DNA of 64,000 bases from Cyclobacteriaceae bacterium (GTDB lineage: Bacteria; Bacteroidota; Bacteroidia; Cytophagales; Cyclobacteriaceae): assembly GCA_016787645.1 (NCBI GenBank), contig JAEUUF010000013.1, forward strand, positions 744,001 through 808,000, given 5' to 3'. This document shows, piece by piece, positions 43,646 to 44,962 of the stretch. How positions within the stretch are numbered: position 1 is the stretch's first letter; every line of letters starts with the position of its first letter. The position numbers and the translations under genes were made by a program. The notes under the pieces are model-generated. The model did no database searches. It was not told where the DNA came from and saw only the letters and a list, made by a program, of their open reading frames with translations.

Positions 43646-44419
43646 ATGGCCATCGTCACCCTGCTCACCGACTCCGGAGAAAGCGACCATTACGTGGCGG
43701 CCATCAAGGCGAAGATTCTCAGCACCAATCCCGGCCTTACCCTTGTCGACATCAGTCACCAGGTTGAACCCTGCGACATTGCCCACGGCGCCTATGTACT
43801 CAAGTCAGTATTTCGCGATTTCCCGAAAGGCAGCGTCCATCTCGTGGCCGTTCATTCGACGGGTGAACCCGAAAGCGCCTACCTCGCCATCCAATTGGAG
43901 GATCATTATTTTGTGGGGATCGACAATGGACTGCTCGGACTGATCTCCGACAAGCCACACCAGAACCTTGTTGAGCTCAACTCGATCAATTCCATCAGCA
44001 CCTCCTTCCCGGAGCGGGATATCCTGGCACAGGCCGCCGCCCGGCTTGCCAGCGGTGTCACCATCACCTCCCTGGGCAAGCCACTGGATGATTACCGCAA
44101 ACTGGTTGCCCGCCTGGTGAAAGCCACCAAGCGGCAAATTCTCGGGCACGTCATTCGTGTTGACCGATTCGGCAACCTCATCACCAACATCGACAAGTCC
44201 GACTTCGACATTCTCAGCAAAGGCAAGCTGTTCACTGTCCAGTTCGGCGGCGAGAAATTCCGCCGCATCCACACCAGCTACCACCAGGCCGACCAGGGAG
44301 ATTGCTTCCTTCTTTTCAACAGCGCGGGACTACTGGAGATTGGGATTTACAAGGGGAATGCGAGTGAGTTGTTGGGGTTGTCGTATGATAGTCCGGTCAA
44401 TATCCTCTTTGAAGAGTAG
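43646..44419 (+). CDS. SAM hydrolase/SAM-dependent halogenase family protein (DUF62)
   Basis: The 257-residue protein matches the S-adenosyl-L-methionine hydroxide adenosyltransferase family, which splits SAM to adenosine and methionine with water. The N-terminal motif LLTDSGESDHYVAAIK carries the conserved aspartate, VHSTGEPES matches the second conserved loop and RVDRFGNLITNI marks the C-terminal domain. Housekeeping members probably remove excess SAM. It is divergent from phoH. G-rich repeats begin at its stop codon. Confidence 0.9.
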   Translation: MAIVTLLTDSGESDHYVAAIKAKILSTNPGLTLVDISHQVEPCDIAHGAYVLKSVFRDFPKGSVHLVAVHSTGEPESAYLAIQLEDHYFVGIDNGLLGLISDKPHQNLVELNSINSISTSFPERDILAQAAARLASGVTITSLGKPLDDYRKLVARLVKATKRQILGHVIRVDRFGNLITNIDKSDFDILSKGKLFTVQFGGEKFRRIHTSYHQADQGDCFLLFNSAGLLEIGIYKGNASELLGLSYDSPVNILFEE

Positions 44420-44462
44420 GGGTCGAGGGTCGGGGTCAGGGGCGAGGGGTTAGGGTTAGGGG
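44418..44462 (+). repeat. G-tract array, copy C (left end of the four-helix-bundle element)
   Basis: Seven or more G-tracts (GGGG, GGG, GGGG, GGGG, GGGG, GGG, GGGG) are separated by 2-4 bases, including the telomere-like GGGTTAGGGTTAGGG. The array starts inside the stop codon of the SAM hydrolase gene. It is the strongest G-quadruplex candidate in the window. Confidence 0.85.
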
Positions 44463-44463
44463 A

Positions 44464-44471
44464 TAGGTTTG
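44464..44471 (+). promoter_or_regulatory. Possible -7 promoter element for the four-helix-bundle gene
   Basis: TAGGTTTG matches TAnnTTTG and overlaps the inner end of the left inverted repeat, so the element may carry its own promoter. No -33 element is evident. Confidence 0.4.
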
Positions 44472-44534
44472 GACACTCGTCAATTAGTCAGGAAAACCGT
44501 CAATGACTTACTTGGCAGTTGCCCTTGTTGATTC

Positions 44535-44560
44535 TTGATTGGATTCGGTAATCCAATCAA
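44535..44560. repeat. Perfect 11-bp hairpin before the four-helix-bundle start codon
   Basis: TTGATTGGATT and AATCCAATCAA are perfectly complementary around the loop CGGT, and the right arm ends two bases before the ATG at 44563. In mRNA it would cover the initiation region; in DNA it would make a good operator. Confidence 0.8.
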
Positions 44561-44562
44561 TT

Positions 44563-44925
44563 ATGAGTTCAATAAAGAGTTATCAGGATCTGATCGTTTG
44601 GCAGAAAGCAATGGAACTGGTGGAGAAGATCTATCTGGAAACCATCCGCTTTCCGAGAACTGAAGTATTCGGTATTACGGCGCAGATGAGGCGTTCTGCT
44701 GCCTCTATTCCCTCCAATATCGCAGAGGGTCATGCGAGGAATGGTACAGGTGAATTCAGGCACTTTCTTGGCATATCAAAAGGATCCCTCGCGGAACTAG
44801 AGACTCTTATCATTTTATCCGGGAAACTGAATTATCTTAACGCAACAATTTGTGAATCATTGATGAGCAAGTGCTCAGAGGTAAACAAACTCATTAACGG
44901 CCTTCTACGATCCCTTTCAAAATAA
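44563..44925 (+). CDS. Four-helix-bundle protein (23S rRNA intervening-sequence protein/S23 family)
   Basis: The 120-residue helical protein has the family signature RRSAASIPSNIAEG, then FRHFLGISKGSLAELET. Members are found as ORFs inside 23S rRNA intervening sequences and as free genes scattered through Bacteroidota, and they resemble the Avd protein of diversity-generating retroelements. The molecular function is unknown, probably nucleic acid binding as an oligomer. The sequence is visibly richer in A and T than its neighbours. The ATG at 44563 starts the conserved SIKSYQDLIVWQKAMEL region. The right inverted repeat begins at its stop codon. Confidence 0.85.
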   Translation: MSSIKSYQDLIVWQKAMELVEKIYLETIRFPRTEVFGITAQMRRSAASIPSNIAEGHARNGTGEFRHFLGISKGSLAELETLIILSGKLNYLNATICESLMSKCSEVNKLINGLLRSLSK

Positions 44926-44934
44926 CCGATCACT

Positions 44935-44961
44935 TGACCCTGACCCCTCGCCCCTGACCCC
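44935..44961 (-). repeat. G-tract array, copy D (right end, opposite strand)
   Basis: Read on the minus strand this is TAGGGGTC-type sequence matching the left copy at 25 of 27 positions. It ends one base before the ATG of the next gene, so it occupies the place where that gene's promoter or leader would be. Confidence 0.85.
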
Positions 44962-44962
44962 T

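What the first reader, a model, noticed from the sequence alone, without database searches (positions are those of the whole stretch)
44432..44961. A four-helix-bundle (S23/IVP-type) gene packaged between 38-base inverted repeats
The left arm (44432-44469) and right arm (44924-44961) agree at 33 of 38 positions, the outer 19 perfectly. They enclose only one 120-residue S23-family gene and its hairpin. The unit fits tightly between two coding regions: G-rich sequence starts in the stop codon of the SAM hydrolase gene and the right arm ends 1 base before the next ATG. In some bacteria the same protein family is encoded inside 23S rRNA intervening sequences that also have complementary ends. A free copy with its own terminal repeats suggests a small mobile or RNA-processed element using this protein, perhaps moved in trans. 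Mobility itself is inference.
Basis: partly seen in the sequence, partly recalled or inferred. Interest (0 to 1): 0.78.

Follow-up and report, generated by a model that had tools for sequence, protein, structure and literature searches.

The report
Gene boxed by mirrored heptamer arrays
A small gene of unknown function sits between two mirrored stretches of a repeated seven-letter DNA word; many genes of this family in other bacteria are boxed the same way, each with its own word, and appear to be small inserted elements with matching repeats scattered through the genome.

Summary
In detail: 33 of 38 paired bases, outer 19 perfect, 0 of 2000 shuffles as good. The arms are not a conserved terminal repeat but arrays of a degenerate 7-nt unit, mirrored around the gene. 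All 7 S23/IVP (PF05635) genes of this genome have such arms, against 2 of 88 control genes, each with a different unit. Many copies in other phyla do too. Gene and arms behave as one inserted unit: 9 of 9 cyanobacterial plasmid sites compared have an S23-free counterpart, and 13 of 13 colinear SAM hydrolase-ABM junctions in same-genus relatives lack the gene. Gene-less heptamer arrays scattered in the genome match the units of its own S23 genes, in two genomes and a hold-out. The unit follows protein relatedness. Best reading: a RAYT/REPIN-like two-part system without a tyrosine transposase, which would also link heptamer repeats reported in Nostoc and Xanthomonas and the 23S rRNA intervening sequence. 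That S23 drives movement is inferred. Against: most genus sites look vertically inherited; no G-U bias between arms.

The parts
43646..44419 (+). upstream neighbour, SAM hydrolase/hydroxide adenosyltransferase; the left array begins at its TAG stop codon
   Evidence: PF01887/PF20257; sequence
44419..44469 (+). left array: degenerate 7-nt units (GGGGTCA, GGGGCGA, GGGGTTA); pairing arm 44432-44469
44535..44560 (+). short hairpin (11-bp stem, CGGT loop) just upstream of the S23 start
   Evidence: sequence, fold
44563..44925 (+). S23/IVP four-helix-bundle gene, 120 aa
   Evidence: PF05635 129 bits, TIGR02436; AlphaFold pLDDT 97; Foldseek 2gsc E 1.3e-8
44924..44961 (-). right array: the same unit read on the minus strand; overlaps the S23 stop codon
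44963..45256 (+). downstream neighbour, ABM-domain protein; its start lies 1 nt after the right arm
   Evidence: PF03992; sequence

Best explanation
The unit 44417-44962 is one copy of a widespread small insertion element: an S23/IVP gene between mirrored arrays of a 7-nt (less often 8-nt) unit, with the C-poor strand reading into the gene from both sides. SHOWN: the architecture; presence or absence of gene and arrays together in short gaps between genes; different units for different S23 lineages; dispersed gene-less arrays in the same genome with the units of its own S23 genes. INFERRED: the S23 pentamer recognises its cognate arrays as element ends (as DNA or single strands), and elements and gene-less derivatives spread by that recognition, as a RAYT is thought to act on its REPINs; slippage and arm-to-arm copying keep the two arms alike while units drift between lineages. 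UNKNOWN: the enzyme that cuts and joins. S23 has no recognised catalytic motif; its closest structural relative of known role, Avd, is the partner of a reverse transcriptase, so an RNA/cDNA step is possible.
For: Own genome: 7 of 7 S23 genes have arm score >=22 against 2 of 88 control genes, Fisher p 3e-9. Broad set (best 80 of at least 584 relatives): 52 of 77 usable loci score >=18 against 6.8% of swapped pairs; 42 of those 52 have period-7/8 units in both paired segments. Period scan 4-15 nt: 172 of 340 flanks have an array, mostly period 7 and its double 14, then 8; 0 of 340 shuffled. Insertion: S23-free counterparts at 9 of 9 plasmid sites compared; one element family at three loci. Cognate dispersed arrays: own genome 18.3 against null maxima 13.0 and 14.4; hold-out 17.8 against 14.6 and 17.4 (the second a narrow margin), genome G024 23.6 against 16.5 and 13.3 on 6 arrays. 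Unit follows protein: Mantel rho 0.139, p 0.002. GGGAWT arrays are found in 7 of 7 genomes whose S23 has GGGAWT arms against 8 of 34 others; without G415, which was picked for its arrays, 6 of 6, p 0.0008. Polarity: left-arm GC skew positive in 98 of 106.
Against: Within the genus S23 sites are mostly single clades: 14 site changes against a minimum of 12, so movement is rare there. At the window's own junction two relatives (L092, L093) have gene-less arrays of another unit, and L300 is an S23-free array pair at a site filled in L109: arrays without S23 at S23 sites do occur. No clean target duplication: one plausible 4-5 bp case (site G), others ambiguous. Six of 25 S23-less genomes of the GGGAATC family still carry arrays. 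Arrays are not rare in gaps of this genome: 10 of 48 ORF-free gaps. Another gene family, GxxExxY, is boxed in similar short-unit repeats, so arrays are not proof of S23 action. No excision intermediate or transposition was observed. Five fetched, near-identical S23 copies in Calothrix look like passengers of a larger repeat.
Confidence: 0.6

Rival explanations
1. RNA-level intervening sequence: the arms pair in the operon mRNA, RNase III cuts the stem and releases the S23 segment, as in 23S rRNA IVSs; the element survives because it is processed out.
For: Coxiella IVS is a 428-nt S23 element excised by RNase III, with tandem heptamers GACAGAT before S23 (PMC4990558 passages); S23 is codirectional in 110 of 126 gaps between codirectional neighbours.
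Against: No G-U excess between arms (166 against 154, p 0.54); selection against disrupting operons explains the orientation as well.
Confidence: 0.2
2. S23 is cargo: arrays and their contents are moved by another enzyme (a nuclease of the GxxExxY/PDDEXK_3 type, a reverse transcriptase, or replication errors) and S23 only rides.
For: GxxExxY genes (PF13366) in the same genus and order are flanked by mirrored short-unit repeats, 21 of 25 at score >=18 against 13% of swapped pairs; S23 has no known catalytic motif; Calothrix copies appear carried inside a larger repeat.
Against: Unit follows S23 relatedness; several relatives have S23 but no GxxExxY match: G002, G008, G028, G030; periods differ.
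Confidence: 0.2
3. S23 genes insert into, or persist in, pre-existing heptamer arrays that arise by slippage.
For: Dispersed arrays are common (37 segments in 400 kb); gene-less arrays occur at the window's junction in L092 and L093 and at site F in L300; heptamer slippage is a published proposal (cited in PMC4679880).
Against: At sites A to H at least one S23-free counterpart per site shows no array by eye; the L092/L093 units (TAGTACT-like) differ from the window's; mirrored polarity on both sides.
Confidence: 0.08
4. An ordinary vertically inherited operon gene with chance inverted repeats.
For: Many sites in the genus are single clades.
Against: Gene absent at 13 of 13 colinear same-genus junctions; arms not chance.
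Confidence: 0.02

Closest known systems
23S rRNA intervening sequences encoding S23p (Coxiella, Leptospira; PMC4990558)
   Same: Same protein family, similar size (428 nt there; 546 nt here; net 428 at Trichormus site G), tandem heptamers before the gene in Coxiella (passages).
   Different: Free-standing, in protein operons; mirrored arrays on both sides with lineage-specific units; dispersed cognate arrays; RNase III excision not tested.
RAYT/REPIN systems (PMC3116915)
   Same: Distinct gene per family beside inverted repeats, with many gene-less hairpins of the same sequence elsewhere; each paralogue has its own repeat family (passages).
   Different: No tyrosine transposase; the repeat is a short tandem unit rather than a palindromic REP.
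Heptameric intergenic repeats: GGGAATC in Xanthomonas, GGGGA(C/T)T in Nostoc (PMC4692102), TAACTGA in Beggiatoaceae (PMC4679880), cyanobacterial STRR
   Same: 7-nt degenerate tandem units, intergenic, often inverted pairs in Xanthomonas; GGGAATC/GGGATTC-type arrays flank S23 genes in 7 of 17 loci of one unnamed gammaproteobacterial family.
   Different: Those two papers do not mention S23 (0 hits in main text).
Avd of diversity-generating retroelements (4dwl, 8ub7)
   Same: Same fold, TM about 0.8, Foldseek E 0.009-0.1; PF05635 noted as Avd-like in PMC10053308 (passages).
   Different: About 10% identity; reverse transcriptase, template and variable repeats were not searched for.
GxxExxY (TIGR04256, PDDEXK_3) genes
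   Same: Small gene boxed in mirrored short-unit repeats in the same genomes.
   Different: Nuclease-superfamily protein; other units and periods.

Membership tests
23S rRNA IVS | S23-family ORF | tested here: met
   PF05635 129 bits
23S rRNA IVS | located inside a 23S rRNA gene | tested here: not met
   Rfam at gathering score finds only one tRNA in the window; flanked by protein genes
23S rRNA IVS | complementary ends | tested here: met
23S rRNA IVS | excision by RNase III | not testable with these tools
   needs RNA; arms show no G-U excess
RAYT/REPIN | tyrosine transposase | tested here: not met
   PF05635 and weak bAvd only; fold 2gsc/2rld/Avd
RAYT/REPIN | cognate dispersed gene-less repeats | tested here: met
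RAYT/REPIN | mobility of the gene-less repeats | tested here: inconclusive
   gene-less palindromic arrays at the same junction in L092 and L093 (0 and 1 of 200 shuffles; L080 weak, 10 of 200); L300 against L291; no intermediate seen
Classical IS/MITE | conserved terminal inverted repeat | tested here: not met
   units differ between copies
Classical IS/MITE | target-site duplication | tested here: inconclusive
   GTAA(T) at site G; sites B and C ambiguous
DGR Avd | adjacent reverse transcriptase, template repeat and variable repeat | not tested
   no search made; the window copy lies between SAM hydrolase and ABM genes; the Avd models score below cut-off

The most novel reading that the evidence does not exclude
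S23/IVP proteins are the dedicated mobility factor of a class of insertion element bounded by mirrored heptamer arrays. The heptamer repeats described in cyanobacteria and xanthomonads would be their gene-less progeny, and the rRNA intervening sequence one such element lodged in rRNA. No known transposase is involved, and GxxExxY genes would be a second, independent system of the same design.
Probability: 0.45. Interest if true: 0.93.

Novelty: categorically new. Interest (0 to 1): 0.85.

Why it matters
It gives a testable role to a large protein family annotated only as four-helix bundle or 23S rRNA intervening-sequence protein, and a testable origin for heptameric intergenic repeats. It would also be a mobile element whose ends are not a fixed sequence but a mirrored short-unit array specific to each lineage, which finders that look for a shared end sequence could miss. 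Copies lie in cas, nrd and conjugation gene clusters of plasmids.

Tried and rejected
Rejected: a conserved terminal repeat shared by S23 genes (units differ). RNA-level pairing as the force that keeps the arms alike: no wobble asymmetry. Calothrix PCC 7103 near-identical S23 copies as proof of self-mobility: in the five fetched, the identity extends beyond the S23 unit into what looks by eye like a transposase gene (not tested). L107 against L289 as a clean empty site: S23 is absent but a different insert is there. An rRNA context in the broad set: 20 of 80 loci scanned, none. S23 in phages: no tblastn match of the window protein in 50,697 records at E 1e-3. Overall S23 against GGGAWT-array co-occurrence is borderline (9 of 16 against 6 of 25, p 0.05); only the cognate-unit split is strong.

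Dropped or biased rows: 92 S23 hits in genus and order loci were reduced to 81 distinct with enough flank, six of the 81 being the window genome's own. 3 of 80 broad loci skipped for short flanks, and 10 of the 52 that pass score 18 have no period-7/8 run in both paired segments. 12 of 39 plasmid records fetched for S23, plus L296 and L302; 9 sites compared, the other fetched loci not. 13 of the 18 SAM hydrolase loci L078-L095 have a colinear ABM gene; the other five (L078 inverted ABM; L079, L087, L088, L094 no ABM hit) say nothing about the junction. One search used arms pre-filtered for period 7/8 (102 elements); the period scan did not. In one search some high scores come from coding sequence, not arrays. 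The Mantel test masks same-locus pairs only within the genus set. Neighbour directions rest on longest-ORF picks. GxxExxY: 27 of 30 fetched loci entered, 25 used. One search concatenated some non-contiguous pieces for its random windows.

Recalled, from no call: the name STRR and its discoverers, and the view that the Calothrix ORF looks like an ISL3-type transposase. The Lin 2006 structure paper was seen only as cited. PMC8700078 was looked at by passages and adds nothing.

Full report
OBSERVATION. They enclose one gene, an S23/IVP protein (PF05635, 129 bits), and a short hairpin. The unit starts in the stop codon of a SAM hydrolase gene and ends one base before an ABM gene.

THE ARMS ARE ARRAYS. 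The genome holds seven PF05635 matches, six over the family's cut-off. All seven are flanked by mirrored arrays of a short degenerate unit, but the unit differs: GGGGTCA for the window copy, then GGCTAAA, GTGATCA, GTATCTGA, GGTTCCAA, AATTCGGT, AATATCGA. Arm-pairing scores are 22 or more in 7 of 7, against 2 of 88 control genes of similar size from 740 kb of the same genome (Fisher p 3e-9).

HOW WIDESPREAD. Of 39 genomes (the window's own and 38 relatives) 33 carry the family. Of 81 distinct genus and order copies, 28 exceed the 99th percentile of swapped flank pairs. Of the 77 with enough flank, 52 score 18 or more against 6.8% of swapped pairs, and 32 score 22 or more against 1.0%. In 42 of those 52 both paired segments have a period-7/8 run; in 10 they do not. 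In plasmids 39 records match, mostly cyanobacterial. I fetched 12; by eye 11 show the same unit on both sides (L113's right side is only about two units), L107 on the left only. In one gammaproteobacterial family, chosen because a member carries GGGAATC arrays, 16 of 41 genomes have S23; 14 of 17 loci have period-7 arrays on both sides (score 9 or more), seven of them GGGAATC/GGGATTC-type.

COMMON RULES. With no period filter, 172 of 340 flanks carry an array (score 14 or more), none of 340 shuffled. Periods are 7 (108) or its double 14 (30), 8 (20), 9 (7), 15 (6), 10 (1). Over 128 arms of period 7 or 8 the median is 4.9 units. Random windows of this genome reach that score in 28 of 2000, ORF-free gaps in 10 of 48. 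The left arm is C-poor (9% C) with positive GC skew in 98 of 106, so the polarity is fixed relative to the gene. Mismatches between arms are symmetric, 166 G-U-compatible and 154 A-C (p 0.54), so there is no sign of selection for RNA pairing. S23 is codirectional in 110 of 126 gaps between codirectional neighbours; 19 more lie in other gaps.

INSERTION. At the window's own site, 13 of 13 colinear SAM hydrolase-ABM junctions in same-genus relatives lack S23. Two of them, L092 and L093, hold a gene-less palindromic period-7 array of another unit (0 and 1 of 200 shuffles); L080 is weak, 10 of 200. In named cyanobacterial plasmids I compared nine S23 sites with homologous S23-free records. At one (cas6/cas4, L107) a different insert occupies the counterpart. 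The other eight, A to H, are nrdB/nrdA, two neighbouring gaps in Nostoc ATCC 53789 plasmids, an integrase cluster, Cmr2/Cmr3, two conjugation clusters, and Aulosira. The cleanest is Trichormus plasmid C against Tolypothrix PCC 7601 at 97.7% identity. At each of the eight, at least one S23-free counterpart shows no array by eye, so gene and arrays seem to come or go together; at site H the flanks are too diverged to place the ends exactly. The exception is L300, an S23-free pair of inverted arrays at the site filled in L109. Three homologous elements sit at three different loci (L112, L117, L302). L292 looks like a truncated S23 (by eye). A target duplication is plausible at one site (GTAA or GTAAT) and ambiguous elsewhere.

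COGNATE DISPERSED ARRAYS. In 400 kb of this genome 37 period-7/8 segments were found, 0 in three shuffled controls. The 33 not near an S23 gene match the units of the genome's own seven S23 genes (mean 18.3) better than any of 20 random seven-gene sets from the genus and order (maximum 13.0) or of 20 from the broad set (maximum 14.4). A second 400 kb gave 17.8 on 23 arrays, against maxima of 14.6 and 17.4 of 40 sets each, the second a narrow margin. Another genome, G024, gave 23.6 against 16.5 and 13.3, on only 6 arrays. Some dispersed units match no S23 of the genome. In the GGGAATC family, GGGAWT arrays occur in 7 of 7 genomes whose S23 has that unit, 2 of 9 whose S23 has another, and 6 of 25 without S23 (7 of 7 against 8 of 34, p 0.0003). 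One of the seven, G415, was picked for its arrays; without it 6 of 6, p 0.0008. At most 4 matches per genome lie within the 1.3 kb around its S23 gene. Across 118 elements unit similarity follows protein similarity (rho 0.139, Mantel p 0.002). Of 8 pairs with 70% or more protein identity, 75% have similar arrays, against about 1% below 40%.

THE PROTEIN. The model (pLDDT 97) is a four-helix bundle, closest to 2gsc of Xanthomonas campestris, published as a homopentamer (PMC4990558 passage), and 2rld, then to Avd in diversity-generating retroelement complexes. Q41 is conserved in 170 of 170, E55 and E78 in 169, S48 in 168. E34, Q41, S48 and E55 lie seven apart on helix 2. This is strong polar conservation for a protein with no known activity. 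Whether it is a binding, structural or catalytic site is open.

WHAT SPEAKS AGAINST. The genus tree needs 14 site changes against a minimum of 12, so most sites look old and vertical. Two thiolase-operon gaps need three changes each, though well-supported branches force only one. Arrays persist in some S23-less genomes. A second family, GxxExxY (PDDEXK_3), shows mirrored short-unit repeats too, 21 of 25 at score 18 or more against 13% of swapped pairs, so the arrays may come from a more general process.

PRIOR WORK. Nine searches of the held library were made; of the listings (capped at 15 to 40 rows) and passages that I saw, none links S23 genes to heptamer arrays outside rRNA. Passages read: PMC4990558 describes heptamers GACAGAT before S23p in the Coxiella rRNA intervening sequence and variation in their number between strains. 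PMC4692102 and PMC4679880 describe heptamer repeats without S23. PMC3116915 describes RAYT/REPIN, PMC10053308 the Avd likeness. Most subscription papers, and preprints, are not held.

VERDICT. A real and general association that I found nowhere described. Presence and absence as a unit and cognate dispersed arrays are shown; the role of S23 in movement is inferred, and the chemistry is unknown.

Noticed in passing
G000:C15:179563-179910, 185811-186161, 648012-648350 (L207, L208, L231): GxxExxY (PF13366 PDDEXK_3) genes flanked by mirrored short-unit repeats (CACAGATTA, CGCAAAGG, GTGATT-type); 21 of 25 loci in the genus and order score 18 or more, against 13% of swapped pairs.
   Followed up: partly
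G045 (Calothrix PCC 7103), L272, L277, L280, L284, L288: Five near-identical S23 copies appear carried inside a larger multi-copy repeat whose upstream ORF looks transposase-like by eye.
   Followed up: no
L107, L108, L113, L114, L115 (plasmids): S23 genes sit in type I-D and III-B cas clusters, between ribonucleotide reductase genes and between secretion/ABC-transporter genes; L289 has a different insert at the cas6-cas4 gap.
   Followed up: partly
L038, L041, L057, L074 (genus relatives): Some genomes carry two or more S23 genes within a few kb, in adjacent gaps of a thiolase-containing cluster, with different S23 clades at the same gap in different species (gene names there are my reading).
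   Followed up: partly
L095 (G024) and L099/L105 (G019): The SAM hydrolase gene next to the site is in broken pieces in two relatives.
   Followed up: no
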